Source: Henckelia pumila (taxonomy: Eukaryota; Streptophyta; Magnoliopsida; Lamiales; Gesneriaceae). Taken from it: a stretch of DNA of 64,000 bases. The notes under the pieces were generated by a model, which saw nothing but the letters and a program-made list of their open reading frames with translations, had not been told where the DNA came from and searched no databases. How positions within the stretch are numbered: the first letter of the stretch is position 1; each line of letters begins with the position of its first letter. This document shows positions 16,090 through 60,269 of the stretch, in pieces. Position numbers and translations under genes: made by a program. The DNA is taken from the NCBI RefSeq assembly GCF_033568475.1, contig NC_133122.1, positions 18,346,206-18,410,205 on the forward strand, written 5' to 3'.

Positions 16090-17016
16090 ATGGAGACGGA
16101 GCATCTCTTTTATAGTCAGATGCATTTTGCGATGCTGAAAATCGACGATGAAGCTAAGAGACGAGTGATTAACGCGCCAGCGATCAATAAATCGAGTTCC
16201 AAGAAGTTCAAGATCCTGGGTGAATATGGGAGAGCAGACGAGTATGAAGCGCCGTTCACTGCGATCGGCAAGGGAACTTACGGCACGGTTTACCTAGCCC
16301 GGGAGAAGAAAACCGGCGAAATCGTGGCGATGAAGAAACAAGTCCACGGATTATCATCGTTGAGAGAAATCGACATTCTACAATCTCTCGTCGGTCGGCC
16401 GTGGTTCGTCGAGTTCAAACAAGTTGTGGTGGATGAACGCAAGGACGACGATGATCATGTGTACGTGGTGATGGAGTTCGTCGAAAACGACCTCAAACGG
16501 TATATGGATGGAATGGCGTGGGCTTTCGCGGAAGACGAAGTCAGGTGCTTGATGAGACAGTTGCTAGAAGGGGTCTCCTTTCTTCACCGAAATGGGATCA
16601 TGCACAGAGATTTGAAGCCCTCCAACATCCTTGTGAACGACAATTGGGGATTGAAAATATGCGACTTCGGATTGTCCAAACGTTTCGAAACAAAGTTTGG
16701 TAGCCATTCTCGTCGGGTAGGCTCTCTGTGGTACAAAGCCCCGGAACTGCTCGATCATGGAGTGGAGAGATATTCGTGTGCCGTGGATATGTGGTCCGTT
16801 GGGTGTATTATGGGAGAGATGTTGCTGGACCAAGTGCTTTTCAAAGGGACGTCGGAGGAGGAACAACTGCAGATGATATTAACAAAGCACGTGGATGAAG
16901 ACAAGTTTTTGTTGGTTTCTGAAGAGGGGATTCATCTACTTAAAAGTATGTTAGATTTGGATCCCCATAGTAGAATAACGGCAGATCAAGCTCTCAATCA
17001 TGAATGGTTCAGATAA
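16090..17016 (+). CDS. K1: intronless CDKG/PITSLRE-like protein kinase (type A/A)
   Basis: 308 aa, complete Ser/Thr kinase fold: glycine loop GKGTYG (60-65), VAMK lysine K82, alpha-C LREIDIL with E93, hinge MEFVEND (128-134), HRD 172-174, DFG 192-194, APE 217-219 and [12 protein letters not shown]. The loop keeps the Thr-Tyr pair that inhibitory kinases phosphorylate in CDKs. The T-loop residue equivalent to CDK2 T160 is S207. SSLREI is reminiscent of the PITSLRE helix of CDKG/CDK11. The segment between EEQLQMI and HLLKSML is about 25 residues shorter than in CDK2-type kinases, so the CMGC insert is reduced. Residues 1-48 are a family-specific N-terminus. The start is supported by CCATGG and a TATA box 90 nt upstream. 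The lack of introns suggests a retrogene ancestor. Cyclin partner and substrate cannot be read from sequence. Confidence 0.9.
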   Translation: METEHLFYSQMHFAMLKIDDEAKRRVINAPAINKSSSKKFKILGEYGRADEYEAPFTAIGKGTYGTVYLAREKKTGEIVAMKKQVHGLSSLREIDILQSLVGRPWFVEFKQVVVDERKDDDDHVYVVMEFVENDLKRYMDGMAWAFAEDEVRCLMRQLLEGVSFLHRNGIMHRDLKPSNILVNDNWGLKICDFGLSKRFETKFGSHSRRVGSLWYKAPELLDHGVERYSCAVDMWSVGCIMGEMLLDQVLFKGTSEEEQLQMILTKHVDEDKFLLVSEEGIHLLKSMLDLDPHSRITADQALNHEWFR

Positions 17017-17610
17017 AGATTTTAGAGTTTTTTTTTTAATTTTTATATTATGTAACTCTATATATATGGGTTAGTCAGGTAGAAGATTGAAATTACAAGT
17101 TCATGTTATGATGTTTAGCTGATAATATTGAACTAGATTTATCTAAAATTAATGACATCATTCCATTCTATTAGACTCGATTATTACTTACCTTGTGTAT
17201 ATGTGTGGATCATCAAAATTAGTTTCTGAAATTAGTTTTTATTTTTTATAACATATGGCTCCATGTTCAAGTTGTCTTTGTAGTTAGATATATGCAACTG
17301 GTTCGTTGGAGTGAATGAACTGGAGAAACTTAATTTGCAAAATAATTGGAGATAATGGAATCTCAGATATATATATGTATATGTTGATTAATTACAACAT
17401 TGGATTAGGGTTGGGGTGGTGGTGACATGTTACTGGCCATGCATATATAATGAATTAAAACGAACGTTAATATATACTTCATTTAAATAAGATGTATTAA
17501 TAAATAAATGATACAGCTTTTAAGAATAGTAAATTATGGTTTTATTTGTAAATTATATATTTTTAATATCAAAATTCAAAAATTTAAATGGTGAAAACCA
17601 AACTGAATCA
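17017..17610 (+). repeat. Type A 3' flank of K1
   Basis: This block (AGAGTTTTTTTTT..., AAGTTCATGTTATGATGTTTAG, CAACTGGTTCGTTGG, GAATTAAAACGAACGTTAA) recurs after K4 (31190-31800) and K5 (58800-59430). It also occurs, split by a CACTA-like element, at 34512-34611 plus 38430-38650. It is not found after K2 or K3, so it marks the type A 3' cassette. Confidence 0.8.
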
Positions 17611-17623
17611 TTGAGTACTCTTA

Positions 17624-17745
17624 GGCCATCTCCAACCCTGCGCTAAAAGCACCATTTTAGCGCATGGAAAATGCTCCAACGGGGGCGCCAAATTCTGCGC
17701 CATTTTGGCGCCCCCAAAGGCCTGCGCCAAATTTGGTGCATTCAT
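17624..17745. repeat. GC-rich MITE-like repeat (GGCCATCTCCAACCC end)
   Basis: A short GC-rich island in AT-rich DNA beginning GGCCATCTCCAACCCTGCGC, with internal inverted copies of TTTTAGCGC and of GGCGCC. This end type is common among plant non-autonomous elements. The other end is not clear. Confidence 0.5.
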
Positions 17746-18181
17746 TTTATTTTTTTTAATTTTTTTAATTACCTTTTATTTGTTTTTTTAAATATTTAAA
17801 TATTAATTAAATATTTTTGGTATTATTTTAATAACTAAATATTAGGGAAAAAAATATAATCATTTAATATAATAAATAAATAAGTATTTTTAATTTAATT
17901 TTATTTAATTTTTAACATTTAAATAATTATTAAATAATTATTTTATAATTAATTTATTTTGTAATACAAGTGCAAATAATTAAACTACAAATATAAATTG
18001 GACTACAAATATCAAATTCGAATACATAAAGGAATACTACTAGTTGAAAATTAAAATACAAATACAAACTGAAATACATAATCAATCTAGAAGTACGTAA
18101 TTGAAATACATGATGAAAACACACATGCAAATTAGAACACATAATTCAAAATACAATTAAAATGACATCATTGAAACACAA
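17746..18181. repeat. AT-rich low-complexity DNA with short degenerate repeats
   Basis: 17950-18180 consists of degenerate repeats of the form AATACAAAYTGAAATACATA. 17750-17950 is TTTAAT-rich. No gene or exon is visible. Confidence 0.5.
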
Positions 18182-18690
18182 AGACCAATTGATATGTGTA
18201 CTGTATTTATATTATGGTGCAACATTTTCAAGAATATGCCAATCATTTTAATTTATTTAGTTTTTGAAATTGAAATATTATATTATTGCGTAAAAGACGC
18301 AATAAAAAAAATTCTTTAACTAAAAAATAATATAAAACTCAATTTTTTCCCTTAAAAGAATCACCCTCCCAAAAAGAGGTAATCAAGCAAACGTCGTATA
18401 TATACTTTAGCACAAGTTGCCCTTGATTTAAAATCCTAGAATTACTAGAAATATGATTGATAAATATTGAATATTTATCTGTATCACAGGCAAAAGTTCT
18501 GTTGCATGCATAAGTACATCTAAAAATAAATAAAAATTTTAAATTGAAAAATGATATATATAAGTAATAAGAAATATTTTTGTCTATCCATTAATTTGAC
18601 TATGATGATTATTCTAAGAAGTTAATGTATTATTATATAGTAAGTATAATATAATATAGATAATAAAATGAATATTTTCAAATAATTTAT
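18182..18690 (+). repeat. Second copy of the K1 upstream duplication unit
   Basis: Direct copy of 15017-15457, with the same order of AGACCAATTGATATG, AAAAGACGCAATAAAA and CACCCTCCCAA blocks and similar TAGTAAGTATAATATAATATA runs near the end. It carries an extra stretch (about 18400-18540) not present upstream of K1. It establishes that K1 and K2 arose by tandem segmental duplication. Confidence 0.8.
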
Positions 18691-18898
18691 AGAATAATGC
18701 TAGAGGAACAACCAATATATCGTACAACAATATTTACAACAATTATGTCGTGATATTTTGCTATTATTTCGTGAGATTTTGATATGATATCGTGAGATTT
18801 TGAATTCAATGTATCGTGAGATTTGATAAATTAAAATTTTGTATTGAATTTTTTGTGGTGTAAAAATTATTGTACAAATTTGGTTGTACATTTTTAGA
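18691..18898. mobile_element. Small MITE in the K2 upstream region
   Basis: About 210 bp absent from the matching place upstream of K1. Ends resemble each other in inverted form (AACCAATATATCGTACAAC and TTGTACAAATTTGGTTGTAC). The middle repeats the motif TCGTGAGATTTTGA three times. No coding capacity. The exact edges are uncertain by a few bases. Confidence 0.55.
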
Positions 18899-18940
18899 TA
18901 ATAATCTTCTCTCCCATTTATCTTATCTTCATGATATATA

Positions 18941-19547
18941 TGAAAAAATTGTTTTTTTGGTTCTTTGTGTTTCTCACTTTACGATGAATGGTGTTATTGT
19001 TCAGATTTGGATAGTTTGAAGTTGTTCTTAAACATCACAATCGAAAGGTAAAAGTGGACTATTATTTGAATGAGACTATAACTCGAGATGGTTTGTATCG
19101 AGTTTTCTTAAATCACATACTTATTTGCTTGTTTGCTTTTATGTGTTTTTTTTATGAATTGTTGAATGAGTCCTTGAGGTCAATGAATGTTATATCGATG
19201 TATATGTTGCATTCATCTTGTGAGACTTGTTCTTTGATTTTAAAATGAACGAAAACGTTCGAATAGACGATTTGAGGAATTATGTAGGTAATCTATATTT
19301 TCATATTTTAGTTTTAGTTCGTTATTTTTATTTTATTTTTTGGAAATTTTAGTTTTTTTTTCGATGTGGCGCTGATGTGACACCAATGCATTGCTGATGT
19401 GGAGCTGACGTGTACAATGCCACGTAAGCATTTTCGAATAAAAAGGACAGAAATTGCCAAAAATAAGAACATGCAACACTAAAATTGAAATATGAAAATA
19501 AAGAAGACTAAAATCGTAAAATGATAAAGATGTCAGACCACAGTTTT
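18941..19547. mobile_element. MULE-like MITE, copy upstream of K2
   Basis: Same family as 32290-32601, 57989-58300 and 20818-21594: inverted ends reading roughly GTTTTTTTGGTTCTTTGTG, and a central GC-rich hairpin around GATGTGGCGCTGATGTG and CTGACGTGTAC. A further insertion of about 250 bp (near 19005-19255) separates the left end from the rest. It pushes the rest of the upstream region away from the K2 core promoter. Confidence 0.6.
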
Positions 19548-19564
19548 TCATATATAATAACTAA

Positions 19565-19712
19565 TTTATATAGGAGTTTGACTTCTAGTAGGAATGCGTT
19601 TTTATAATAAAATCTATAAATACGGTAGAGAAGAATTCATTCATCATACGTACAAAAACAAACAAACGAACGAAGTCTATAATTCTCATCATATTTTCAT
19701 TAATAATCTATC
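19565..19712 (+). promoter_or_regulatory. K2 core promoter and leader (type A)
   Basis: TATA box TATAAATA at 19615-19622, preceded by GAGTTTGACTTCTAGTAGG as in K1. The leader contains ACAAACAAACGAACGAAG and is a close copy of the K1 leader. Confidence 0.65.
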
Positions 19713-20666
19713 ATGGAGACGGGGCATCTCTTTTATAGTCAGATGCATTTTGCAATGCTGAAAATAGACGACGAATCTAAGAGACGAGTGATTAACGCGA
19801 CAGCGATCAACAAATCGAGTGCCAAAAAATTCAACATCTTGGGTGAATATGGGAGAGCGGACGAGTATGAAGCCTTCACTGCCATCGGCAAGGGAACTTA
19901 CGGCACGGTTTACCTAGCCCGGGAGAAGAAAACGGGCGAAATCGTGGCGATGAAGAAACAAGTTCATGGATTATCATCGAGATCATCGTTGAAAGAAATC
20001 GACATTCTACAATCTCTCGTGGGTCGCCCCTGGTTTGTGGAGTTCAAGCAAGTGGTGGTGGATGGATACAATTATAAGGATGTTTACGTGGTGATGGAGT
20101 ACGTCGAAAACGACCTCAGAGGGTTCATGGACGGAATTAGTACAGAGGGTAAATTCATGGAATATTGGGAAGTCAAGTATTTGATGAAACAGTTGCTAGA
20201 GGGGGTCTGCTTTCTTCACCGTAATGGGATCATGCACAGAGATTTGAAGCCATCTAACATCCTTCTGAGTGGCAACGGCGAGCTGAAAATATGCGATTTC
20301 GGGTTGTCCAAACGGTTCGAAAGAGAGTTTGATAGCCATTCTCATCATGTGGGAACTTTGTGGTATATGGCCCCCGAGCTGCTGACTACTGAGGCGACGG
20401 TGTATTCTTGCGCTGTGGATATGTGGTCTGTGGGGTGTATTATGGGAGAAATGTTGCTGAACCAAGTGGTTTCGCAAGGGAATTCCGAGAATGAACAGCT
20501 GCGGAAAATAACCAAGGCACTGACCAAGAACCAATTGTTTGATAGATTTTGTTTGATTATTTCACCCAAGGGACTTCATCTGCTGAAAAGGCTTTTGACT
20601 TACGATCCTCAAAGCAGAATCACGGCCGCTGAAGCTCTCGATCATGATTGGTTCAGAGAAATTTGA
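19713..20666 (+). CDS. K2: intronless CDKG/PITSLRE-like protein kinase (type A/B mosaic)
   Basis: 317 aa with intact motifs: GKGTYG (59-64), K81, alpha-C SSLKEIDIL with E95, hinge MEYVEND, HRD 175-177, DFG 195-197 and APE 220-222. Residues 1 to about 117 are nearly those of K1, including the N-terminus MHFAMLKIDDE and the promoter. From the hinge onward the protein and its 3' flank match K3 (MDGISTEGKFMEYWEVKYLM, APELLTTEATVYS, ITKALTKN, DHDWFREI). It is therefore a recombinant of the two types. The start is supported by the same leader as K1. Same reduced CMGC insert as K1. Confidence 0.9.
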   Translation: METGHLFYSQMHFAMLKIDDESKRRVINATAINKSSAKKFNILGEYGRADEYEAFTAIGKGTYGTVYLAREKKTGEIVAMKKQVHGLSSRSSLKEIDILQSLVGRPWFVEFKQVVVDGYNYKDVYVVMEYVENDLRGFMDGISTEGKFMEYWEVKYLMKQLLEGVCFLHRNGIMHRDLKPSNILLSGNGELKICDFGLSKRFEREFDSHSHHVGTLWYMAPELLTTEATVYSCAVDMWSVGCIMGEMLLNQVVSQGNSENEQLRKITKALTKNQLFDRFCLIISPKGLHLLKRLLTYDPQSRITAAEALDHDWFREI

Positions 20667-20817
20667 ATTTAATTACCTTTTCTTTTTATCATGTTATATA
20701 AGCTGCTTATGCAATTCTCTTGTGATGAGTTTGTTGGTGTAGAAGATTGAAATCTCAAATTTCATGTGATAAAAGTTTAGCTAGCTATCATTGTTGAATA
20801 TCAGTTGTAATTAATAT
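20667..20817 (+). repeat. Type B 3' flank of K2
   Basis: The block TTGAATTTAATTACCTTTTC ... TGTGATGAGTTTGTTGGTGT ... TTTAGCTA also follows K3 (23764-23910). It differs from the flank of K1, K4 and K5. Confidence 0.8.
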
Positions 20818-21594
20818 ATTGGAAAAAAATTGTTAATTTTAGTTCTACATGTTTGTCACTTTGCGATTTTGATCATCTATATTTTCAAATTTCAATTTTA
20901 GTCGTCTATCTTTAGTATTATTATTTTATTTTTGCAATTTTAATTCTTTTTCTAATGTGGCGCTGATGTGACACCAATACAGTGCTGATGTGGAACTGAC
21001 GTGTATGATGCCACGTAATCATTTTTGAATAAAAATGACTGAAATTACCAAAAATCGAATCATGCAATACTAAAATTAGGCCTGTAAACGAGCCAAACCG
21101 AGCCGAACTATAGCAAAATTTTAGTATTCGAGTTCGAGCTCGAGTTCGAATTGAGATATTCGAAGTTCGGCTCGAAGCTCGAATTTTTTTTTATTTTCGG
21201 CTCGAGTTCGATTCGTTAGAGAGTTCGAGTTCGATTCGAATATATTATATAATATTATCTATATATAATATAATATTATTTATAATATAAATATAATATT
21301 TTATTTAATATATATTATATATTATATAAAATATTATATATTTATATTATATAAAGGCTCGCGAACTTTCGAACATAAGATTTTAGGCTCGAGTTCGGTT
21401 CGTATAATAGTTCGAGTTCGGCTAGAGTTAGAAAAATTTGAATCCGAATCGAATATTTTTTCGAGCCGGCTCGAAAAGTTCGCGAACCGGATCGGCTCAT
21501 TTACAGCTCTAATTAAAACTGAAATATGAAAATATAGATGACCGAAATCACAAAGTGAAAAACATAAAGTACCAAAATTGCTAGGTTAAGCGTG
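20818..21594. mobile_element. MULE-like MITE with a nested second element
   Basis: Outer element: inverted ends of the TTTTAGTTCTACATGTTTGTC type and the GATGTGGCGCTGATGTG core shared with 32290-32601. It is split by a second element at 21077-21516. Confidence 0.65.
21077..21516. mobile_element. Nested TIR element (AGGCCTGTAAACGAGCC ends)
   Basis: Inverted ends AGGCCTGTAAACGAGCC and, at the right, GGCTCATTTACAGCTCT. It is rich in GAGTTCGAGTTCGA and CGGCTCGA repeats around an AT core (21240-21355). It lies inside the MITE at 20818-21594. The family is common in plant genomes; the class was not assigned. Confidence 0.65.
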
Positions 21595-21800
21595 CAAGGG
21601 TAAGATCGGATCTTAACGGGTAATACTGTCTCACCTGAAAAGGGATATGAGACAACACCAAAAGTAAGAGACGCTCCTCCCTAGACTCACGATCTTAACA
21701 ACCCGACTCATCTTCGCTAACACTAGTATAATGAAATAAAGTTGCACCTTGGCTAAAACCAATAATGTTTGTCTTAGTGATAAACGTTTGATCCTGACAA
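21590..21800. repeat. Partial composite short repeat (SINE-like), K2-K3 spacer
   Basis: A copy of part of the repeat at 33529-34165: GTTAAGCGTGCAAGGGTAAG, TCTTAACGGGTAATACTGTC, GATCTTAACAACCCGACTCA and the A-box-like CTTAGTGATAAACG. It is discussed at the longer copy. Confidence 0.6.
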
Positions 21801-22490
21801 CAAAATTTTTAAAACTATTTCCAGTTTTGTTCTCTAAAATATTAAATAAAATATAAAATTATTAAAAATATTTTCCAATTTTTTAATGTAAATATTTCGT
21901 CGTGAATTTTTAGTATATTTAATGTTATTAAATTGACATTATGATTATATATGTATCTTACTTCGAATTTTAATATAATATTGTTAACATATGTTCTAAA
22001 AAATAGTTACAAATTTTAACCAAGGTATATTCATTTAGATGAATAACAAATTTTTTGAGTTTTGGAAAAAAAAATTAATAATGCATTCATTAAAATTTTG
22101 AGAAAAAAATAATATATGAATTTTTAGATATCTTTTTTTCTATTTTTTTAATGATAACAGTTTCATTTAACCAAAATATCGAATGCATTGGTATAGAATT
22201 CGATTTAATGACAAAATATTGGTATTTTCATTTCAACGTTATCTCAAATGACATAAATATTTTTTATATAATAATTCATTTAAAATTAAATATATCTATA
22301 ACATTATTAGAAATATATTGTGAGAATATATATTTTATTTAATTATTTGTATTTTTATTTTTGAGATAAATATAAATGTATATAATTATTTATTTATTAA
22401 ACATAATTGAATAGTTTTATTATAAATAAATTATTTGTCTATATTTTATTATTATTATTATTTTTAAGGGATTTGTTGATATTTTATTAC
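21800..22490. repeat. AT-rich repeat unit upstream of K3
   Basis: The run from TTTCCAGTTTTGTTCTCTAA through CGTCGTGAATTTTTAGTATA and TCATTTAGATGAATAACAAA recurs at 27715-27956 and 34166-34511 and in the right-arm mirror images. 22080-22490 recurs at 29382-29760. It shows that the K3 upstream region and the outer palindrome arm are copies of one ancestral segment. No gene is visible. Confidence 0.75.
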
Positions 22491-22499
22491 TACACGCTC

Positions 22500-22837
22500 A
22501 TCCATATTTTTATACTAATTTCTAGGTTTTGCAATCGCAGGGCAACTTGTGCAACAAGATAATTTACCCAAGTTTTATTGATTACTAGAATCTAACTTGT
22601 GATGCGGAGTGATATTTTATATAATTTTTGCAACCTTTTAGACGAAAATGTCCCTTCTTATCTTCAAGATTAATCCAATAACAAATTTGGTAGTTATATT
22701 AGATTTAGGAGTCATCTTCTAGCTAGGATTTCCTTTATGTGTTTTAAAATCTATAAATAGTTCTTTCATTCTAAAACAAAAAAAGTGTGGACAAATTCCC
22801 AAGCTATATTCAATATTGTTTCATCATATAATTTACC
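22500..22837 (+). promoter_or_regulatory. K3 promoter and leader (type B)
   Basis: TATA box TATAAATA at 22752-22759. Upstream is GGAGTCATCTTCTAGCTAGG, the type B version of the conserved block. The stretch from TTTGCAATCGCAGGGCAACT to the TATA box is shared with K4 (29780-30190) and, in mirror image, K5. Confidence 0.65.
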
Positions 22838-23767
22838 ATGGTGACCGTGGATTATCAAATGCACTTCCCCAAGCCAAAAACACCGTTAATCACCATAGAT
22901 TATCAAATGCACTTCCCCAAGCCAAAAATCGCATATGAATCCAAGGGAGGGATCGAATTCGGGAGAGCAGATGAGTACGAACTTTTGCAGGAGATCGGTC
23001 GAGGAAGCTACGGCAGAGTTTACCTAGCCCGGGAGAAGAAAACCGGCAAAATCGTGGCGATGAAGAAACAAGTCCACGGATTCTCAAGATCATCGTTGAG
23101 AGAAATCGACATTCTACAATCTCTCGTCGGTCGGCCGTGGTTTGTTGAGTTCAAGCAAGTGGTGGTGGATGAATACAAGGATGTTTACGTGGTGATGGAA
23201 TACGTCGAAAACGACCTCAGAGGGTTCATGGACGGAATTAGTACAGAGGGTAAATTCATGGAATATTGGGAAGTCAAGTACTTGATGAGACAGTTGCTAG
23301 AGGGGGTCTCCTTTCTTCACCGAAACGGGATCATGCACAGAGATTTGAAGCCCTCCAACATCCTTCTGAGTGGCAACGGGGAGCTGAAAATATGCGATTT
23401 CGGGTTGTCGAAACGGTTCGAAAGAGAGTTTGATAGCCATTCTCATCATGTGGGAACTTTGTGGTATATGGCCCCCGAGCTGCTGACTACTGAGGCGACG
23501 GTGTATTCTTGCGCGGTGGATATGTGGTCTGTGGGGTGTATTATGGGAGAAATGTTGCTGAACCAAGTGGTTTTACAAGGGAATTCGGAGAATGAACAGC
23601 TGCGGAAAATAACCAAGGCACTGACCAAGAACGAATTGTTTGATAGATTTTGTTTGATTATTTCACCCAAGGGACTTCATCTGCTGAAAAGGTTTTTGAC
23701 TTACGATCCTCAAAGCAGAATCACGGCCGCTGAAGCTCTCGATCATGATTGGTTCAAAGAAATTTGA
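22838..23767 (+). CDS. K3: intronless CDKG/PITSLRE-like protein kinase (type B/B)
   Basis: 309 aa. Residues 3-14 and 19-30 are a tandem duplication (TVDYQMHFPKPK and TIDYQMHFPKPK), a feature shared only with K4 and K5. Kinase motifs are complete: GRGSYG (54-59), K76, SSLREIDIL, hinge MEYVEND, HRD 167-169, DFG 187-189 and LWYMAPELL. The CMGC insert is shortened as in K1. The ATG lies in CCATGG 79 nt after the TATA box. The protein is the parent-like type for the C-lobe of K2 and the N-terminus of K4 and K5. Confidence 0.9.
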   Translation: MVTVDYQMHFPKPKTPLITIDYQMHFPKPKIAYESKGGIEFGRADEYELLQEIGRGSYGRVYLAREKKTGKIVAMKKQVHGFSRSSLREIDILQSLVGRPWFVEFKQVVVDEYKDVYVVMEYVENDLRGFMDGISTEGKFMEYWEVKYLMRQLLEGVSFLHRNGIMHRDLKPSNILLSGNGELKICDFGLSKRFEREFDSHSHHVGTLWYMAPELLTTEATVYSCAVDMWSVGCIMGEMLLNQVVLQGNSENEQLRKITKALTKNELFDRFCLIISPKGLHLLKRFLTYDPQSRITAAEALDHDWFKEI

Positions 23768-24369
23768 ATTTAATTACCTTTTCTTTTTATATATGTTATG
23801 CTTATATATGCAATTCACTTGTGATGAGTTTGTTGGTGTAAATCGCAAAATTCATGTGATCAAATTTTAGCTATCATTGTTGGATATAATTAAGTTGTAA
23901 TTAATTTTTTATATAGTGTCATATAAACTCTCTCACACTACCACTGTCTATAAATATTTGGTTAGAAATTTATACAAACTAAAATTAGGTGAAAAGCTAG
24001 TGATTGATGACAAGTGAATTATCAAATAAAATAAGTTTATATATAGGCCTGTGAAATAATGCTTGGCATGTCTTTGTCTTTAGCAAACAGTTCCTCTATA
24101 TTATTTAGTTTTTGAACATCTAAATAAAAATAAAAAAATTATTTAATTTCAAATTAATGATGCAATACAAATATTTTCATCTCTTATTATAAAAACACAG
24201 TTTTTCTCAAATATGGAAAGTTCTAGGCCAAATTAATTATTAGTTAAAAAAGAAAATTATAGCTGTAATTATTGGACAATAAATTATCATCAATTTAAAT
24301 AAGACAGCCGTAAACCATGTACATTAAATTACCATCAATTAAGTAAAGCTGTCTATACAAATTGTGCAA
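23768..24369. other. Type B 3' flank and AT-rich spacer after K3
   Basis: 23768-23910 is the type B 3' flank. The remainder is AT-rich with no gene, no clear repeat and no exon-like run. Confidence 0.5.
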
Positions 24370-24605
24370 TGTTATAAATATATTATTATTATAGATGATT
24401 ATCTTATTTAATATGTGATCAATATAAATATGTAAAGATAATATTTGTACAGATTTGTATCTTGTAATTTTTCCCTATAAATAGGGGTGATTGAGTTCAA
24501 TGAAATTTGCACCTGAGTATTGACTCATATGATTATCTCTTCTCTCATGAATTCTCTCTATTCATGTCTCTATTCATCTCTCTTATTCTTTTATGATTTA
24601 TAACA
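24370..24605 (+). mobile_element. 5' LTR of a degenerate Ty1/copia-type element
   Basis: 236 bp starting TGTTATAAATATATTATT and ending ATTTATAACA. It contains a possible TATA region (CCCTATAAATAGGGG, near 24473-24487). A related LTR in the opposite orientation lies at 63634-63857. The sequence directly after it reads as a primer-binding site. Confidence 0.8.
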
Positions 24606-24619
24606 CGTTATCAGCACGA
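24606..24619 (+). other. Primer-binding-site-like motif
   Basis: CGTTATCAGCACGA directly after the LTR. This motif is usual after the 5' LTR in one group of plant copia elements and fits priming by a tRNA fragment. Confidence 0.6.
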
Positions 24620-48407: not shown

Positions 48408-48409
48408 CT

Positions 48410-48867
48410 TGTTGGTCCCAGGTGCGGCATCACGATATAGAAACTATGAAAATTGAAGAATAAAATAGACACCAAGATTTACGTGGAAAACCCCCAAAAA
48501 TTATTAGGGTAAAAACCACGGGCAAGATCAAAAGATTCCATTATAATATTTGGAGAATTACAACCTCTTTCTGTGTTTCCAAAGAGACACTCACTCTCTT
48601 ATACAGGAGAAAACCTATCTCACAAATATATATAGAAATAATTAAGGAAAGAGGAGAACTCAAGAATCTGAGAAATGAACTTGAGATGGGATGATTTCGA
48701 ATGCTGGGAATGCATCTATTTATAGATGCCAAAATCTGAACCTCAGGTGTGAATACGCGTGAAGGAAAATCAGAATGAAATTGCCTTCAGCTACACGAAT
48801 TTTCTTCAGCTGCACATGGAATTTGACTAAATGCATATGAATGCATTAATTATGCCACTTGCCAACA
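48410..48867 (-). repeat. 5' LTR of the copia element
   Basis: 458 bp, same ends as the 3' LTR. The four differences by eye are G/T, C/T, A/G and A/G. Confidence 0.95.
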
Positions 48868-48872
48868 TAAAG

Positions 48873-49008
48873 CAATAAGTAAGACAAAATCGCAATGAAA
48901 AAGTGCAAAAAAGTATACGAACCTGTCGATTGCTTCTTCTCTAAAGTCACTGGCACCCAGAAAAAAAGCTCCATATATTAGATTTCATCAAGTGATTATC
49001 ATTCAACG

Positions 49009-49045
<37 letters not shown>

Positions 49046-50091: not shown

Positions 50092-50172
<81 letters not shown>

Positions 50173-52198
50173 CATCTTTTACTATTTATTTAGTGTAAAA
50201 ATATTAGAATAACTAACTTGGTATCATGATCTATTTTTCAATATACCCAAAATATCTCTTCTCTTCAATTTTTTTTTCTTCATGTTTCGTACTTACTATC
50301 CTCACATCTCCAATAACACTTTTTGTCGATTCCAGTTCTTTTTTTTTTTTTTCTAATTAACCTAACCTGTTAAGCATCAAAATTCATATACATGATAGTT
50401 TTTATTTTACACACACAAATGCGTATGCACCGTTGCTAGTTATTATTATGCAATAAAGCTCAATGCGGATTGAATTAAGAAAAAAACAAACATTCTTGAC
50501 GATCATGAATCTTTTTGAACAACTAATTATATAAAACACGTTTTTTTAAATATTTTTATAAAATGTTTTACCAAAATTTTTAAGAATAAATATGTATTTT
50601 GACAACTATTTCATAAAAATATTTTTACAATTAACAAAAGTAATATGTTTTTATTTTATCAAAGTTTTCAATTCTAAAAACATAAAAAAACACACATCTC
50701 ATTTATTCTTTAAAAACTATACTCAGAGATCATTTTTTTAAAAAAATTACTTTTAAAAAACATTTAAAAAAATCTTGTCCAAACAAATACTTTAAGTTTT
50801 TCATACTAAAAACGTTTTTAAAGTACTTATCCAAACGAAACTTATGTTTTTTTTTTTTATTATTTCATGTTATCTTTCATTTAATTGCCCAAAAGAAACC
50901 GACACATGTATCTTAAGTTTGAACTATAGTCATTGAAATGAAACTCATCTAGGTGCTAGTAGCCAATATTACATATATGTTGGGATATCTTTGTCTTTTA
51001 TTTTGTTTTGTTTTTACGAGAATGCAAGTTTCGGCCTTCTCGTCATTTCTCGCCTCTCAACTACAACTCTTGATCGAGTTGGCTCTGCTTATGTTTTTAA
51101 GAGTTTAAAAAAGTCAACATCCATTCAAGTGGATTTGAAGTTCATGGAACTTTTCGGCCATGAACTCAAATCGATCATAAAGGTAAATCCATATTTTGTA
51201 CATTTTTCATGACAAATCTATTATCTAATATGATATCCCGAGATTTCAAGGTTATTTTAAAGTTTTGGAGTCAAGACATAATCTGTCATCTAAAAAAGAA
51301 TAAGGATCGAGGTATTGTTTCCTAGGAAGTGAAGGGTGCTGGTCGAAAATGGATGTGTTAGAGAAGTAGCCTCGAGAATTCTTCCGGGAAGTCGGGTAGG
51401 AATGGGGGTCCAAGCTCAAATTGCCCAAGTAAGGGTAGCAAGGGCCCAAAGACAGATAGATGGCCTGGAAAGCTAGCAAGACATAGTAGAGATGGTCATA
51501 AAGCCGCCAGAGATTTTAAGACTGAGTCAACTCTAAGCAGACATCGCCTATTACTCAGGAGCACGTCTTCCCCACATCCCCACGCTTCCAAGCACTTCCG
51601 TAATACCAACCATGATTCATTATCATGACCATTATCTAGATATTTTGGAGGAGCCCCTCTCTTTCTAGATCTTATTTATACTACACAAAATAGGTACAAC
51701 ATGGGGTATGTTCATCTTTAGACAGGTTACAATATGGGGTATGTTCACTTTGAACACAATAAGCTCCAAGAGGAGGGCATATAAAGAGACAGGTACAAAA
51801 ATACATTTAAACTTGTGACAATATAAAAACATCTTTGCTTTCCATATATCGCTCTAAAACTAAACATCATGGAACCCAAAACATCTCATGAATACAAGTG
51901 TAATAGGAAGTTGTGCTAAACAAAAGAATCAATTTCAGAATCCACATGGCATAAGATTGAAACTTGTAAAGTGAGATGTAAAAGTGTTCATGGATTCAGT
52001 TTGGTTTTCTCCATTTGCTAGATATTTGAATTTTGGTATTAAAAATATATAATTTACAATTAAAACCATAATTAACTATTCTTAAAATTAAAGCTGTATA
52101 ATTGATTTATTAATACATCTTATTTAAATGAAGTATATATTAACGTTCGTTTTAATTCATTATGACCAGACATGTCACCACCACCCCAACCCTAGCCC
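48873..52198. other. Inner right arm, mirror of 38430-41640
   Basis: Same content as 38430-41640 in reverse orientation. The microsatellites are longer than in the left arm: AAT repeat 50094-50172 (about 78 bp against about 33) and TA repeat 49012-49040 (about 29 against about 16); the CAAAAT repeat at 49478-49515 is slightly longer. The hydrophobic open run is at 49664-49951 (-) and the exon-like run at 50991-51212 (+). No gene is identified. Confidence 0.5.
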
Positions 52199-52518
52199 AT
52201 AGTTGTAATCCGTTGTCTATGAGCGGGCTTTTTATGGCCTACGACAACGGATTTAATTAACCGTTGTCTATGTGCGTGTTTTTGGTAGGGTCTACGACAA
52301 CAGTTTTAAAATTGTTGTCTATGTGCGTTTTTTAAGCTCTACGACAACGGTTTGTTTTTACCGTTTTCTTTTTCTATTTTTTTTTATAATTGTTTAAGTC
52401 CACATTTTTGTTAGACTTTTCTTTTCTTTTTTTGTTTGTTTGTTTTGTTAAAGAAAAAAAAAACGTATAAAATAAACAAGAGGCTACCCAAACACAAAGA
52501 AAGAACAAAAGAAAAAAA

Positions 52519-54366
52519 ATGAAAACTCCAAACCCTATGCCTCAGTCCATCGCATTCGATCCAGCACAGCTCCGATGCCGAGAAATCAAGGATTAGAAAT
52601 TATCAGCAATTATGTTCCCTTTCGATTTCAAATAAAAATCAAAAATTTTTTGTACTTGTTTGATTTCGAAATTGTGTGGGTGTGCCTGAGTTTACGATTT
52701 GGGGTTGAGTTTGTTTGATTTCTAAAATTACGAATTTTAGTGGCGAAATTTGGTTGAGTGGGGGTTGAATTATGGGAGTTTCGACCATCTTTCTTGTGAC
52801 TCAGTTTGCTTTCCATGGGAGTCTGCGCATTACCCTTATTGGAATCCTGTGTGCTGGATTGACCATTGGCTTGTTCAAGACTCTGAGCAGATCATGCTCT
52901 TGGAATTTTCGAGCATACAAGGACATACAGTTTCAAGCTCTTTTCAAGGAACGTTCCAATTTACTTGACACGTTGAGACAGTTGGATGTATGAGTTTTCC
53001 TAGTTGTTATGGTTAACTTAGTAAAGAGATCAACCTTTTGACTTTCTCTTTGCTGCTTCCATTTAGTTTTTTTCTTGAGGTTTATTTTCTAATCACAATT
53101 GTAGTTTGTTGAAATTGTAGTTTGTATTTTACATCTTATCAAGAAGTCAAATTAGTTTTGTCACCATTGAGTTAATCAGAATCAGTCAGTTTCTCCCCTT
53201 ACTGATAACAAATAAAAAATTAATTCACAGCTGCATTTTCGCATTTATTCTGAGTTGATAATTCTCGTTTCATTTAAAATTGGATTTTTTTGCATCATTA
53301 TGGGGAATCAATTCATGAATCTCATAAGACATGTCTCATGAAACAAAGAACCTTTTTTTTTTTTTTTTGAGATTTGAAAGTAAGAGTTTTAATACCACTA
53401 GACTTGTTTCTTATTATCTATTTACTAACGCTAACATGCTAAAAACTCCAACGTCATATTTGGTTGGTACGGAGTTTTTTTTTGCCAATATCATGAATTT
53501 CTTGAGTGTATATTTATTTTGGTAGTTTCCTCTTTATTAGGGAATGCCTATAAAAGTTCTCCAAATCCAATACAGTCTGCCTCGTTAGCATCATATGTTT
53601 GAATAGGAAAACACATGAATTTCATTTTGCTTTCCCAGGCAGCAATTAGCTGAAGTTTCTGAACTAAATGATGGAGAATTCCACTCAATGAAGCACGACT
53701 ATACTAATGTGGCCCAAGGAAAATATAGTGGTATTTCTTTAACCTTATTTCCAACCCCTTTGAATTCTTTTAGCTTTTCTAATCTTAATTTTAAGTATAT
53801 TGAGTCACCTAGAGTGTCATGTGTTGTTAGGTTGCAGTTCAATACAGAAAAAATAACTGCTCGGTTGATATCTTTAAGTACATTCCTTTTTTTTTAATTT
53901 TTAACTAAGGTTTGATGAGATGATGATTTATTGTTGATAATTTGGTTCCCTTTCTTTTTTGAAAGGATGATGTGGTTATTATGATGTGATTTTTGCTGAT
54001 ATGTATACTATTTTTTGTTAATATTGGTCATTGCTGGTTACATGAGTTGAAAATTATGGCTTTTATTGTATCGATTGTGATTCAACATTACTGTTTGAGT
54101 CTAGTGGGTTTATCACATGTCTTCTTTATTTTTAATATTGTATCTACCTTACATTAGAGCTGGTTTATCACAGGTCTGCTTTATTTTTTTTCTAAAAGAG
54201 GGTATTTAAAATATTGTTTAAACGTCGTTTTGTGATGTGTAATCTCATTCTCTGCAGAGGAGAGAAATGCAGCCGCAGGAAGGACGCCTTCGAGTCTACC
54301 CCTGTCCACTCCGCCCCCAGTGACACTCAACCCTTCTCCAAGATTTGGAGCTCTGTATCTTGAGTG
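52519..54366 (+). pseudogene. Unidentified captured gene fragments, right arm
   Basis: Plus-strand mirror of 36240-38110: MKTPNPMPQSIAFDPAQ from 52519, FQALFKERSNLLDTLRQL (about 52930-52985), EVSELNDGEFHSMKHDY (about 53653-53705) and a C-terminal-looking TLNPSPRFGALYLE with stop near 54363. The protein is not recognised. Confidence 0.4.
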
Positions 54367-54824
54367 AGAATAAGATCGCCTTAATATGGTTAAATAATTC
54401 TGTTACTTTTGATTTTATGTAGTAAAACATACTCTGAGATCTCCTGGTGATTCATCTTGTTAGCAGATGATAATCTTAAATGGCGATTCGAAGAGGCGAA
54501 TCCTCTTCCATGATTATATATGCAGTTATAGGCCCATGAAGGTTACATACAAAACTCTAGATTTTGTGTAGTTTTGATGTGTTAGTATTTATCTTAATTG
54601 GAGGGCAATGCCCTATGCTATCATACTTGGCACGTGTGTTATTGATGTTATTTCTCGTTTTTTGCCTTTTCCTTTGGGAAGGGGACAATAATGTATTCAA
54701 GTATCAATTTGATCATATTTATCATAGGTTGGTCATCAAAAGTAATCACTCCACTCGTTGTGGCTCCGCCCTGTGAACCCTCTCCAACAGAGTATCAACA
54801 TAGAGAGGAATATACTGTGTACAG

Positions 54825-55371
<547 letters not shown>

Positions 55372-55999
55372 GTGAGTGGTTAATTACATTTTGTGAAAGA
55401 GAGATAGGTGTTTGTTCAATATTATATCAAAATGATAACTAGTAGATTTTGTTTTTCAAGTTTATTTAACTTTTGTTATTGATGTATGCTTCAGAGGGTG
55501 ATAAACCGAAGATCGAAGAGTAGTTGATGTGAGCTGGAGCTAATTACACCATCAAGGATGCAAAGGGTCGGACCACCATGTCGATATCATTTGTAGTGAG
55601 CATTGAATTAGAATTTTAATTTGATTTGTAATACTAAAAAATTGTATATTAAATTTTATTTATGAAATTTTAAATTTTGGTTTATTTATAATATTAAAAT
55701 TTATATGAAAATATTTATAATTTTTTGTTTTTTATATAGAAAAAGACAACGAAAGGGATTGAAAAACTGTTGTAATTAATGGTGTTGTCAAAACTGCGCT
55801 CCTATCCGTTGTCGTTTTCCTCAAAGACAACGGATTTATGCCTACGACAACGGATTTTATCAGTTGTCGTTGGCAACGACAACGGATAAAATCCGTTGTT
55901 GTAGGGGCACAGTTTTGACAACACCATCAGTTATAACGGTTTTTCAGCCCCTACGACAACGGATAAAATCTGTTGTCTTTTTGTGTTTTTCTTGTAGTG

Positions 56000-57060
56000 T
56001 TTAACAATTATCATTTATGCAAAGTTTATCCAGTTCACTCCAACGAACCAGTTGCAATATCTAATTTACAAAGACGTACAACTTGAATAGAATAAAAAAA
56101 TAGATATCTAAAAATTCATATATTATTTTATTTCTCAAAATTTTAATGAATGCATCATTAATTTTTTTTTCCCAAAAACTCAAAAATTTGTTATTCATCT
56201 AAATGAATAAATATTGGTTAAAATTTGTAACTATTTTTCAGAACATATGATAACAAATATTATATTAAAATTCGAAGTAAGATACATAATCATAATATCA
56301 ATTTAATAACATTAAATATACTGAAAATTCACGATGAAATATTTACATTAAAAAATTGGAAAACATTTTTTTAAAATTTTTATATTTTATTTAATATTTT
56401 AGAGAACAAAACTGGAAATATTTTTAAATTTTTTTTTGTCAATCAAGCATTTATCACTAAGTCAAAAATTTTAGGTTTTTGCCAATGTGCAAACTTTATT
56501 TCATTATATATACTTGTGGTAGCGCAGATGAGTCGGGTTGTTAAGATCATGAGTCTAGGGGGGCGTGTCTTACTGTTGGTGCTGTCTCATATATATCCCT
56601 TTCCGATAGAGACAGTATTACCCGTTAAGATTTGGTCTTACCCTTGCATGCTTAACCTAACATTCCTCACACCCACCCAACCCCCTTCCCCCCCACCCCA
56701 ACCCCAACCCAAGAAGTATAATTACATGTAGGCTTGATGGAAGACTCGAACTCATGACTTTGGTTCTGATACCAGTTTTTAGGATCAAGCGCTTACCACT
56801 AGCTACGCCAAAAGCTATAGCTATCAGCCAAGGTGCAACTTTATTTTCTTATACGTGTGATAGCGCAAATGGGTCGGGTTGTTAAGATCATGAGTCTAAA
56901 GTGGAGCGTGTCTTACTGCTGTTGTTGTCTCATACCTCTTTCGAGATCAGTCTTATCATTTTCCTACTGTCAGCCATGTCCCCAACAGAGATAGTATTAT
57001 CTGTTAAGATCTGGTGTTCCAGCTCTTTTACGGCCACAAACCACATATCCACCGGATCGA
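56000..57060 (-). repeat. Type A flank fragment, AT-rich unit and composite SINE-like repeat, right arm
   Basis: Mirror of 33529-34611. 56000-56095 is the flank fragment and 56095-56430 the AT-rich unit. 56430-57060 is the composite repeat with its B-box-like tRNA part (GGAAGACTCGAACTCATGAC on this strand, near 56738). The C run of the left arm is shortened here. Confidence 0.6.
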
Positions 57061-57979
57061 ATATGGTAATGGATGGCATCATGATACTCAAAACAATCTA
57101 GTAATGAGAGTTACGGTATTTATTTATTCAACAAGATTCAACGTACCAATGGTGCACACTCTCAACTTCTCGTGATGCACCAACTCGGTGATGCCTTCAG
57201 GTAAATAAGCCATCTGGAAGATGAAAACAGACAACGTTAATAGTGAGAATGTGGACAAGAAGAGGAACTATGCCCATCACTTCTCACGAAGTTTCATGGA
57301 CCTGCATAACTATATTACCTCATTTCTATCTCGAGTGCAGTTTTCACCTATCAGATGCCTTAAATATTTTTCAAATTCTTCATCAGGGGCCTTCAAGAAA
57401 TTATGATGCAAAGAAAAGTGAGAAAAATACATTAAGTTTCACGCGTAAATTCGACGAGTTGAAAATCTTAACATTGGAAAAAATGTACCGTACGGACACC
57501 AAATGCTTTAGCAACACCAATGGTGACATCTAAAAGTAAGGGACCAAACGATCCATATATGAAAACCTTCATATACTTCAATCTAAGCGGAGCCTTACAG
57601 AATTTCATCTCCCACGGCAATAACTGAGGCTATGAACATGCTTTTCCAATGTGAATTTTCACATTGCAAGCCATTGCTAACAGCAGATAATGGCTGACAA
57701 GTAAATTTTTTTTTAACTCTCCCTGCTCTTTCCAATCTTCCATCCTGGAGCAGATAGTCAGGTTTGAATCTTTCTTCACTATTGCTCGACTTTCCATGGC
57801 ATTGTGCATTAGGAACAGTGTCATGAATGCTACCAATTGAAGTGTAGCTGCAGCATTACATAACAATACACCATGTTACCTATTATATCGACATAGAATA
57901 CCATATGACACAAAATAAGGGAAGTTAAAAATTAAATCTCAGACCAGCACCAAAGAATTATGGAATGAAACACAGGTAC
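57061..57979 (-). pseudogene. FAD-synthase gene fragment, right arm
   Basis: Mirror of 32611-33528 with the same exon 8-9 deletion and shared exon 7 frameshift. It differs at the exon 12 start, which here reads ATGGCTTAT with no stop. It is therefore a separate copy that has drifted since duplication. Confidence 0.9.
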
Positions 57980-57988
57980 AATTTAGAA

Positions 57989-58300
57989 GGGAAAATTGCT
58001 TTTTTAGTCCTGTATGTTTGTCATTTTGCGATTTTGGTCCTCTATATTTTTAGATTTAAGTTTTAGTCCGCTATCTTAATTTTTTGGCAATTTTAATCAT
58101 TTTTCTGATGTGGTGCTGATGTGGCACCTATGCAGTGCTGATGTGGAGCTGACGTGTAATGTGCCACGTAAGCATTTTCGAATAAAAAGGACTGAAATTG
58201 CCAAAAATCAAAACATGCAGGACTAAACTTGAAATATGAAAACATAGAAGACCGAAATCGCAAAGCGACAAACATAAAGGACCAAAATTGCAGTTTTCCC
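57989..58300. mobile_element. MULE-like MITE, right arm
   Basis: Mirror of 32290-32601, with its 9-bp target duplication preserved as AATTTAGAA (57980-57988 and 58301-58309). Confidence 0.85.
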
Positions 58301-58309
58301 AATTTAGAA

Positions 58310-59438
58310 TGATTATGAAATTATGTACTCGTTCCTAGTAACAGTTGATTGATGAATATTTATTGTGAACGTGATCGATCATGTGGCATATAAATCATCT
58401 ATTTTAATTGTATAAATCTACTCTTGATCGACTACTCTAACACTAAACTTAACATAAACTTTGAACACAATAAGCGCCAAGCTGAGCTAGGGCATATTAA
58501 GACAGGTACAAAAATACATTTAAACTTGCAACAATATAAAAACAACTTTGCTTTTCATGTATGGTAATTTGGAAGAGTTTTTAGGATGCACTTCTCAGCA
58601 CTCCTCAGCATTTTTTTTTAGAAAGCACTTCTCAACTTTTTAAGTTCTCCCACAAACTATTTAAAACTAATCATCATGGAACCCAAAACATCTCACGAAC
58701 ACAAGTGTAATAGGGAGCGCTACTAAACAAAAGAATCAATTTCAGAATCCACATGGCATAAGATTGAAACTTGTAAAGTGAGATGTAAGAGTGTTCATTG
58801 ATTCAGTTTGGTTTTCACCATTTAGATTTTTGAATTTTGGTATTAAAAATATATAATTTACAATTAAAACCATAATTAACTATTCTTAAAAGCTGTATAA
58901 TTGATTTATTAATACAACTTATTTAAATGAAGTATATATTAACGTTCGTTTTAATTCATTATGGCCGCCAGTAACATGGCCAAACCCAATGTTGTAATCA
59001 ACGTATACACATATCTGAGATTTCATCATCTCCATTTATTTTGTAAGGGAAATTGCTTTTTAGCCTTTAACAATTATCACTTATGCAAAGTTTAACAGTT
59101 CACCCCAACGAACCAGTTGCATCTAATCACAAATTAAAGACAACTTGAACATGGAGCCATATGTTGTAAAAAATAATAAAATAAAAAATAATTCCACATA
59201 TATACACATGGTACGTAATCGAGTCTCATAGAATGGAATGACAGTCCAAAATATGTCATTTTATATAAATCTTGTTCAATATTATCAGCTAAACATCATA
59301 ACATGAACTTATAATCTCAATATTCTTCTACCTTATAGACTAACCCATATATCTAGAGTTACATATATAACATAAAAAAAACTCTAAAATATGGTATCAT
59401 GCGTGAGTATATGCATGGCATCCGGTACTTTATCTGAA
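58310..59438 (-). repeat. Type A 3' flank of K5 and adjoining DNA
   Basis: Mirror of 31160-32280. No gene is visible. Confidence 0.7.
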
Positions 59439-60269
59439 TCATTCATGATGGAGAGCTTGGTCTGCTGTTATTCTACTGTGGGGATCCAAATCTAACATGG
59501 TTTTAAGCAGATGAATCCCCTCTTCAGAAACCAACAAAAACTTGTCTTCATCCACGTGCTTTGTTAATATCATCTGCAGCTGTTCATCCTCCGACGTCCC
59601 TTTGAAAAGCACTTGGTCCAGCAACATCTCTCCCATAATACACCCAACAGACCACATATCCATGGCAGATGAATATCTCTCCACTCCACGATCGAGCAGC
59701 TCCGGGGCCTTGTACCATAGAGAGCCTACGCGACGAGAATGGCTACCAAACTTTGTTTCGAAACGTTTGGACAATCCAAATTCGCATATTTTCAATCCCC
59801 AGTTGTCGTTCACAAGTATGTTTGAAGGCTTCAAATCTCTGTGCATGATCCCGTTTCGGTGAAGAAAGGAGACCTCTTCTAGCAACTGTCTCATCAAGCA
59901 CCTGACTTCGGCTTTCGCGAAAGCCCACGCCATTCCATCTATATACCGTCTGAGGTCCTTGCGTCCATCCACCACAACTTGTTTGAACTCGAAGAACCAC
60001 GGGCAACCGACAAGGGACCGGAGAATGTCGATTTCTCTCAAAGAAGATGCATGGACTTCTTGTTTCTTGATGGCCACGATCTGGCCTGTTTTCTTCTCGC
60101 GGGCTTGGTAAACTCTCCCGTAGCTTTCTCGACCGATCTCGTGCAAAAGTTCATACTTATCTGCTCTCCCGCACGCGATTTTTGGCTTGGGAAAGTGCAT
60201 TTGATAATCTATGATGATTAACGGTGTTTTTGGCTTGGGGAAGTGGGTTTGATAATCGATGGTCAACAT
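59439..60269 (-). CDS. K5: kinase-like ORF with hinge deletion (probable pseudokinase or pseudogene)
   Basis: Open for 276 aa from the ATG at 60269, equivalent to the K4 start; an upstream in-frame ATG at 60338 would add 23 leader residues. Residues 3-30 carry the double DYQ-HF-KPK repeat. The glycine loop is GRESYG (46-51), with Glu for Gly. K68 and HRD 143-145 are kept. Fifteen hinge residues are missing (KDL at 104-106, where K1 has 15 more). DFG is EFG (163-165). A TGG-to-TGA change ends the ORF after HHE, two residues early. Without a hinge and DFG aspartate ATP use is unlikely. Unlike K4 it has no frameshift. The promoter is type B (TATTTATA at 60404-60411). Confidence 0.75.
   Translation of the reverse strand: MLTIDYQTHFPKPKTPLIIIDYQMHFPKPKIACGRADKYELLHEIGRESYGRVYQAREKKTGQIVAIKKQEVHASSLREIDILRSLVGCPWFFEFKQVVVDGRKDLRRYIDGMAWAFAKAEVRCLMRQLLEEVSFLHRNGIMHRDLKPSNILVNDNWGLKICEFGLSKRFETKFGSHSRRVGSLWYKAPELLDRGVERYSSAMDMWSVGCIMGEMLLDQVLFKGTSEDEQLQMILTKHVDEDKFLLVSEEGIHLLKTMLDLDPHSRITADQALHHE

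What the first reader, a model, noticed from the sequence alone, without database searches (positions are those of the whole stretch)
16090..60269. Reciprocal shuffling of 5' and 3' kinase cassettes
Two promoter plus N-lobe cassettes (A: MHFAMLKIDDE type; B: double DYQ-HF-KPK type) and two C-lobe plus 3' flank cassettes (A: MDGMAWAF type; B: MDGISTEGKFMEYW type) occur in all four combinations: K1 A/A, K2 A/B, K3 B/B, K4/K5 B/A. The switch lies near the hinge codons in each case. This points to repeated unequal crossing over or gene conversion at one hot spot that pairs different promoters with different catalytic halves.
Basis: seen in the sequence. Interest (0 to 1): 0.85.

Follow-up and report, generated by a model that had tools for sequence, protein, structure and literature searches.

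The report
Fusion kinase genes inside giant palindrome
A cluster of CDK-like kinase genes, probably from a plant, holds two genes that look like head-and-tail fusions of two older neighbours, and the cluster was then copied in mirror image into a 72-kb palindrome, so what looked like free shuffling of four types is better read as about two recombination events plus a mirror duplication.

Summary
The mosaicism is real; the "hot-spot shuffling" reading mostly is not. Two old lineages exist. X: K2 throughout. Y: K4/K5 and three damaged genes on contig C2. K1 is X 5' fused to Y 3'; K3 (and a copy on C88) is Y 5' fused to X 3'. The switches differ and neither is at the hinge: K3 at codons 60-63, K1 at codons 103-104 (hinge motif starts at codons 118 and 126). 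Two breakpoints beat one and none (AICc 6570, 6627, 7466). The order K2-K3-K4 = X, Y/X, Y is what unequal crossing over of a tandem X-Y pair gives (anti-Lepore type); K1 is the Lepore type.

K4 and K5 are one damaged gene seen twice. The window lies in a 72-kb palindrome (12,945 to 85,272, past the window's end), with mirror copies of K1 and K3 outside the window. Arms differ by 2% around K4/K5, but by no substitution over 4.6 kb around K1 and 2.2 kb around K3, suggesting arm-to-arm conversion. A non-palindromic relative shows the 49-bp loop continuous with the left arm: a fold-back origin. The X parts of K1-K3 show purifying selection. Known kinds of process; an instructive combination.

The parts
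16090..17016 (+). K1, intact 308-aa CDK11/CDKG-like kinase; X-type 5' flank, N-terminal extension and N-lobe, Y-type C-lobe and 3' flank
16396..16401 (+). K1 switch point X to Y (codons 103-104)
   Evidence: best split of 578 sites against K2/K4, 0/2000 shuffles (against K2/C2b the best split is columns 678-684); two-breakpoint AICc optimum
19713..20666 (+). K2, intact 317-aa kinase; X type throughout, no counterpart in the right arm
22838..23767 (+). K3, intact 309-aa kinase; Y-type promoter, N-extension and glycine loop, X-type remainder
23017..23025 (+). K3 switch point Y to X (codons 60-63)
   Evidence: best split of 540 sites, 0/2000 shuffles; AICc
30251..31160 (+). K4, Y-type pseudogene: hinge deletion of 45 bp and frameshift
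59429..60338 (-). K5, mirror copy of K4 in the right arm, same 45-bp deletion and a stop near the end
12945..42731 (+). left arm of the palindrome
42732..42780 (.). 49-bp palindrome spacer (loop), continuous with the left arm in a non-palindromic relative
42781..64000 (-). right arm, continuing outside the window to coordinate 85,272 (C3:18431477)
13288..17883 (+). arm-to-arm substitution-free tract around K1 (4,596 bp; one indel)
21951..24127 (+). arm-to-arm substitution-free tract around K3 (2,177 bp)
43845..48867 (-). Ty1/copia-type LTR retrotransposon inserted in the right arm next to the centre; LTRs about 459 bp, 99.1% identical, 5-bp target duplication (TAAAG, read from the printed edges)
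18983..19283 (+). fragment of a long terminal repeat in the K2 upstream region; an 8.8-kb element with 1.37-kb terminal direct repeats sits at the matching place in the right arm (70462-79229, outside the window; no domain search made)

Best explanation
A tandem pair of diverged CDK11/CDKG-like kinase genes, X then Y, recombined out of register. One product kept X, a Y/X fusion and Y in a row: today's K2, K3 and K4. The opposite, deletion-type product, an X/Y fusion, is K1, which now stands upstream of K2. The fusions joined Y's promoter and N-terminus to X's kinase body (K3) and X's promoter and N-lobe to Y's C-lobe (K1). The Y genes themselves decayed, while K1, K2 and K3 stayed intact. Later the K1-K2-K3-K4 block was copied in mirror image by a fold-back event, giving K5 and, outside the window, mirror copies of K3 and K1; the mirror K2 was lost beside an LTR element. 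Arm-to-arm conversion has since kept K1 and K3, but not K4/K5, identical between the arms. Shown: the mosaicism, the two breakpoints, the two lineages, the palindrome in this assembly, the substitution-free tracts. Inferred: crossing over rather than conversion for the fusions, how K1 came to lie beside K2, fold-back replication as the origin of the palindrome, conversion as the cause of the tracts, loss (not late gain) in the K2 difference.
For: Sites that tell Y (C2b) from X (K2), as like-Y: like-X in columns 511-570, 571-690, 691-1330: K3 18:1, 6:25, 13:127; K1 4:14, 4:24, 120:17; K4 19:1, 22:6, 123:11. K1 differs from Y (C2b) by 28/111 = 25.2% in columns 571-690 but 44/614 = 7.2% after (Fisher 1.9e-7; against K4 22.5 and 6.0%, 5e-7); K3 by 39/380 = 10.3% before column 571 but 29/117 = 24.8% in 571-690 (1.7e-4; against K4 11.4 and 22.5%, 0.0047); K2, the control, is far from Y in every segment (51.4, 29.2, 24.3%). 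AICc none/one/two breakpoints 7466/6627/6570 (grid of 12 columns between 480 and 800). AU rejects a K2+K3+C88 clade in the 5' part (1e-44 and 2e-8 for two column ranges) and a K1+K2 clade in the 3' part (0.001). Outgroup-rooted trees give X and Y as sister clades for columns 571-690 (support 88 and 96) and 691-1335 (89 and 100), with K1 changing sides. Flanks fit: K1 and K2 share upstream blocks, K1 and K4 share the downstream block, and both ends of the K2-K3 spacer recur in the K3-K4 spacer. dN/dS 0.11 (K1-K2, codons 1-98) and 0.14 (K2-K3, X part). Palindrome; loop continuous with the left arm in a relative 79 kb away, junction at ACATTA.
Against: In columns 571-690 K1 and K3 are closer to each other (3/111) than either is to K2 (8/111, 10/117; small counts), so K2 may be only a sibling of the X parent, or later conversion occurred. 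K2-K3 similarity stops 140-150 bp after the stop codons (20815/23905), which a conversion tract would also give. Parts of the flanking blocks are repeats: 21583-22149, which overlaps the K3/K4 upstream block, also matches 33931-34515, and 17391-17632 in the K1/K4 downstream block also matches 38412-38651, so only 22150-22759 and 17019-17390 are clean evidence. The middle of the two intergenic spacers is not shared. The two fusions have different breakpoints, so they are not simply reciprocal products of one exchange. Selection on K1's Y-type C-lobe was not tested by dN/dS.
Confidence: 0.55

Rival explanations
1. Gene conversion instead of crossing over: tandem copies of X and Y genes had one half overwritten by a neighbour (Y 3' half into K1, Y 5' half into K3, or X 3' half into K3), without change in gene number.
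For: Shared similarity ends 140-150 bp past the K2/K3 stop codons and about 620 bp past the K1 stop codon, as tract ends would; apparent conversion is seen on a larger scale between the arms.
Against: K3 and K4 share upstream blocks (21854-22759 against 27704-30185, part of it a repeat) and K1 shares upstream blocks with K2 and the downstream block with K4, so flanks follow the halves; the X, Y/X, Y order is unexplained.
Confidence: 0.3
2. One event only: K1 (A/A) and K3 (B/B) are old types and K2 alone is the recombinant, with K4 an old B/A type.
For: The four-combination pattern by itself needs only one recombination; K2 does split as K1-like then K3-like (442 sites, 0/2000 shuffles).
Against: K1's 3' part and K3's 5' part are much closer to Y genes than their shared N-lobe part is; a lineage diverging once would show similar depth throughout. 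Two breakpoints beat one by 56 AICc units, though that comparison does not itself count events.
Confidence: 0.12
3. Repeated shuffling at a single recombination hot spot near the hinge.
Against: Breakpoints at codons 60-63 and 103-104, neither at the hinge; K4 and K5 are one case; about two events suffice.
Confidence: 0.05
4. The palindrome is an assembly artefact: two haplotypes joined head to head, so K4/K5, K1/K1' and K3/K3' are alleles.
For: Alternating zero-difference and 2% stretches and arm-specific insertions are also what two haplotypes show. No reads were available.
Against: No N in the 194 kb read; outside the palindrome the two flanks share only element-like inverted matches of 66-68% (-10023 to -7703 against 97579 to 99891); the arms differ by 1.5% right up to the centre, so a single fold-back read cannot explain it; the search with the centre found the two arms, one 87% relative and two short weak matches, no third near-identical copy (4 candidates); that relative shows the loop continuous with one arm.
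Confidence: 0.12

Closest known systems
Haemoglobin Lepore / anti-Lepore fusion genes (recalled; the one search with that term found no held paper)
   Same: Unequal crossing over of a tandem pair gives a deletion-type 5'/3' fusion and a three-gene array with the opposite fusion in the middle; K1 and K2-K3-K4 have these forms.
   Different: Both forms stand side by side on one chromosome, have different breakpoints, have diverged from the parental types, and were then duplicated as a mirror image.
Maize P1-wr tandem array with p2/p1 and p1/p2 chimeras (PMC2686159, five passages seen)
   Same: Plant tandem array with chimeric genes and recombination among repeats.
   Different: There the p2/p1 chimera carries filler DNA and arose by another mechanism than homologous recombination; here the switches lie inside homologous coding sequence.
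Salix purpurea W-chromosome palindromes (PMC7023750, start of abstract and passages seen)
   Same: Plant palindromes with local arm-to-arm conversion (a 3-kb stretch without paralogous variants there) while other parts of the arms diverge.
   Different: Here a single palindrome with arms of about 30 and 42 kb; whether the chromosome is sex-linked is unknown; genes are CDK-like kinases.
CDKG / CDK11 kinases
   Same: Best solved-structure matches of K3 are CDK11B; PL(T/S)SLRE-like motif (LSSLRE in K1) as given for CDKG in PMC9850575 (passages seen).
   Different: Single open frames of about 310 aa, missing most of the segment after the alpha-G region that CDK11B and the longer paralogues in this genome keep.

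Membership tests
CDKG/CDK11 kinases | Closest to CDK11 among solved kinases | tested here: met
   K3 only searched: CDK11B 199 bits, a CDK3 construct 177, CDK2 up to 174; sequence score, not a tree
CDKG/CDK11 kinases | PL(T/S)SLRE cyclin-binding motif | tested here: inconclusive
   K1 GLSSLRE, K3 SRSSLRE, K2 SRSSLKE: core kept, first residues differ
CDKG/CDK11 kinases | Kinase catalytic motifs (G-loop, VAxK, HRD, DFG, APE) | tested here: met
   present in K1, K2, K3; K4 and K5 lack the hinge segment
CDKG/CDK11 kinases | Full CMGC C-lobe with insert region | tested here: not met
   segment present in longer paralogues, mostly absent here; so 'CDK11/CDKG-like', not filed as a full member
CDKG/CDK11 kinases | Cyclin L-type partner and activity | not testable with these tools
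   no biochemical or expression data
Lepore/anti-Lepore type unequal crossing over | Fusion switch inside homologous sequence | tested here: met
Lepore/anti-Lepore type unequal crossing over | Array order X, Y/X, Y with flanks following the halves | tested here: met
   K2, K3, K4 order; shared flanking blocks, partly overlapping repeats
Lepore/anti-Lepore type unequal crossing over | Whole spacer duplicated | tested here: inconclusive
   both ends shared, middle not shared
Large palindrome with arm-to-arm gene conversion | Inverted arms with short spacer | tested here: met
   arms 12945-42731 and 42781-85272, 49-bp spacer, in this assembly
Large palindrome with arm-to-arm gene conversion | Tracts of arm identity far above the background | tested here: met
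   4,596 and 2,177 bp without substitutions; random placement of the inner-arm differences gives at most 619 bp in 2000 trials
Large palindrome with arm-to-arm gene conversion | Concerted change relative to another species | not testable with these tools
   no related genome held

The most novel reading that the evidence does not exclude
The palindrome acts as a repair device for a young kinase family: fusion genes made by crossing over are then locked in pairs, and arm-to-arm conversion keeps the intact pairs (K1, K3) identical while the dead pair (K4/K5) drifts, as proposed for sex-chromosome palindromes; the region might even be sex-linked or otherwise low in recombination.
Probability: 0.12. 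Interest if true: 0.65.

Novelty: new member of a known kind. Interest (0 to 1): 0.4.

Why it matters
It shows both fusion types expected from unequal crossing over of one gene pair preserved together as intact genes. It also gives a recent palindrome in which conversion can be measured gene by gene. As a process nothing here is new; as a worked natural example it is useful, and it warns that 'five copies in four combinations' shrank to about two events once the mirror duplication was seen.

Tried and rejected
Hinge hot spot: rejected by the breakpoint positions. Treating K5 as an independent case: rejected by the palindrome. C88 as an allelic contig of this locus: not settled. In the 40 kb of C88 compared, this locus shares the K3 region (about 1.7 kb, opposite orientation), 3.0 kb at 93% and 1.2 kb at 87% in the left flank (same orientation; whether these are repeats was not tested) and 0.5 kb at 69%; a 3-kb piece of C88 hits this locus only at K3 and its mirror copy. 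A dispersed copy seems more likely. A K1/K3 pair as reciprocal products of one exchange: breakpoints differ, so this would need an added conversion tract; not pursued. Two constraint trees (K1+K2 and K1+K2+K3+C88) are compatible with each other in an unrooted 5' tree, so only the rejected third tree is informative there; rooted trees were added. The 5' flank and N-terminal extension of X and Y align hardly better than chance (N-terminal extension 56-62% different), so site counts there are inflated; the counts use only columns 511-1330. C2c, which is truncated, was left out, of the 3' trees and. Paper searches: six; two searches found nothing; three papers were looked at by passages, none in full. 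No claim is made that such a palindrome is unreported. The odds of the explanations are not exclusive: the artefact rival concerns the palindrome only.
Full report
WHAT IS THERE. The window is C3:18346206-18410205 of an unnamed 885-Mb assembly of 133 contigs. A Ty1/copia-type retrotransposon, genome size and the CDKG-like genes suggest a plant (inference). K3, the one searched, matches CDK11B best among solved structures.

THE PALINDROME. The repeat search showed inverted arms, and the fetched flanks extended them: 12945-42731 mirrors 42781-85272, with a 49-bp spacer. K4 and K5 are the mirror images of one gene. K3 and K1 have mirror copies outside the window with identical coding DNA; K2 has none. 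Substitutions between the arms: 278 of 13,997 positions in the inner part, 16 of 1,062 at the centre, 47 of 5,716 in the K3 block, 24 of 6,339 in the K1 block. The last two are uneven: none in 13288-17883 and none in 21951-24127. Next to these tracts there are 2 in 12945-13287, 22 in 17884-19283 and 47 in 24128-27666. Random placement of the inner-arm differences never gave a clean run above 619 bp in 2000 trials. Recent conversion between arms is the simplest reading; identity by descent between haplotypes is the rival if the assembly is wrong.

Where K2 lies in the left arm the right arm has an 8.8-kb element with 1.37-kb terminal direct repeats (98.2% identical) abutting the K3 block. A 300-bp piece of the same terminal repeat sits at the matching place in the left arm, inside the upstream region that K2 shares with K1. 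So K2 most likely existed before the palindrome and its mirror copy was deleted (inference). A relative of the central sequence at C3:18308430-18309248, 87% identical, continues from the left arm through the spacer and beyond. The palindrome therefore looks like a fold-back: the sequence ran to ACATTA and then turned back onto its own strand. That the turn has a few bases of overlap is my reading.

THE MOSAICS. Nine gene copies (K1-K5, the C88 copy and three on C2) were aligned with flanks. Two lineages appear. K4/K5 and the C2 genes are Y throughout (C2c as far as it goes); K2 is X throughout. K3 and C88 are Y up to column 570 and X from column 578; K1 is X up to column 688 and Y from column 693 (678 and 684 when C2b stands for Y). 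Each of the six triplet tests had 0 of 2000 shuffles reaching the observed split. A tree-based scan (243 trees, 8 sequences, cut points every 12 columns from 480 to 800) gave AICc 7466 for no breakpoint, 6627 for one and 6570 for two, best at columns 564-576 and 688-700. AU tests reject a K2+K3+C88 clade in the 5' part and a K1+K2 clade in the 3' part. With two outgroup genes X and Y are sister clades in columns 571-690 (support 88 and 96) and in the C-lobe (89 and 100), and K1 changes sides. In window terms the switches are at 23017-23025 in K3 and 16396-16401 in K1. The hinge motif starts at K1 codon 126 and K3 codon 118, so neither switch is there.

WHY TWO EVENTS AND NOT ONE OR MANY. By end labels alone one recombination would do. 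But K1 is 25% different from Y in its N-lobe part and 7% in its C-lobe, and K3 is 10% different from Y in its 5' part and 25% in its N-lobe part, while K2 is far from Y in every part (51, 29 and 24%). So Y sequence entered K1 and K3 after X and Y had split, at two places. Nothing requires more events. A result against neat parentage: K1 and K3 are closer to each other (3/111) than to K2 (8/111 and 10/117) in the columns between the breakpoints (small counts).

MECHANISM. Unequal crossing over of a tandem X-Y pair predicts X, Y/X, Y in that order, with each half carrying its own flank. K2, K3, K4 have that order; K3 shares upstream blocks with K4 and the start of its downstream region with K2; K1 shares upstream blocks with K2 and the downstream block with K4. 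Parts of these blocks also occur elsewhere in the region (21583-22149 at 33931-34515; 17391-17632 at 38412-38651), so the clean evidence is shorter than the blocks. Gene conversion would also make mosaics and is kept as a rival. How K1 came to lie beside the other three is not shown.

FUNCTION. K1, K2 and K3 keep the catalytic motifs looked for and their X parts show dN/dS of 0.11 and 0.14, so the genes are probably used; K1's Y-type C-lobe was not tested in this way. The five Y-type copies (four if K4/K5 count once) carry lesions: a shared hinge deletion in K4 and K5, a frameshift in K4, stops in K5, C2a and C2b, truncation of C2c. A 171-bp search found the X-type 5' end at K1, its mirror copy and K2 only (the search gives lower bounds). 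The effect of the promoter exchange on expression is unknown.

LIMITS. One assembly, no reads, no expression data, no related species. The genome search reports lower bounds for counts.

Noticed in passing
G000 C88:350452-352137: A copy of K3 with the same Y/X structure and an intact frame; coding DNA differs from K3 by two non-synonymous and no synonymous changes, while the 5' flank differs at 11 of 198 sites, which suggests recent exchange or constraint.
   Followed up: partly
G000 C1:88239272, C1:88364435, C1:88455163: Longer related kinase (open frame of about 405 codons) in three near-identical copies in both orientations within 220 kb (98.8-99.7% over the best pieces), another recent direct/inverted duplication in the same family.
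   Followed up: partly
window 11164-11557 and 13342-13845 against 32603-32995 and 33017-33528: Blocks upstream of K1 match blocks downstream of K4 at 95% and 91%, in the same order and direction. This could mean that a Y-type gene once stood upstream of K1 in a longer X-Y array, or just repeats.
   Followed up: no
window 43845-48867: Copia-type retrotransposon 1.1 kb from the palindrome centre, only in the right arm, LTRs 99.1% identical; its insertion may have stabilised the palindrome by breaking its symmetry.
   Followed up: no
window 22838-22930: Y-type N-terminal extension holds an internal repeat (DYQ-HFPKPK twice); X-type has one weakly similar segment (YSQMHFAMLKI).
   Followed up: no
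window -4081 to -1474 (L010): Dense array of direct tandem repeats left of the window, about 52-bp spacing by eye from the match list.
   Followed up: no
window 15464-15838 and 32290-32601: Short imperfect palindromic elements (75.7% and 69.4% self-complementary) near K1 and downstream of K4, probably small transposable elements.
   Followed up: no
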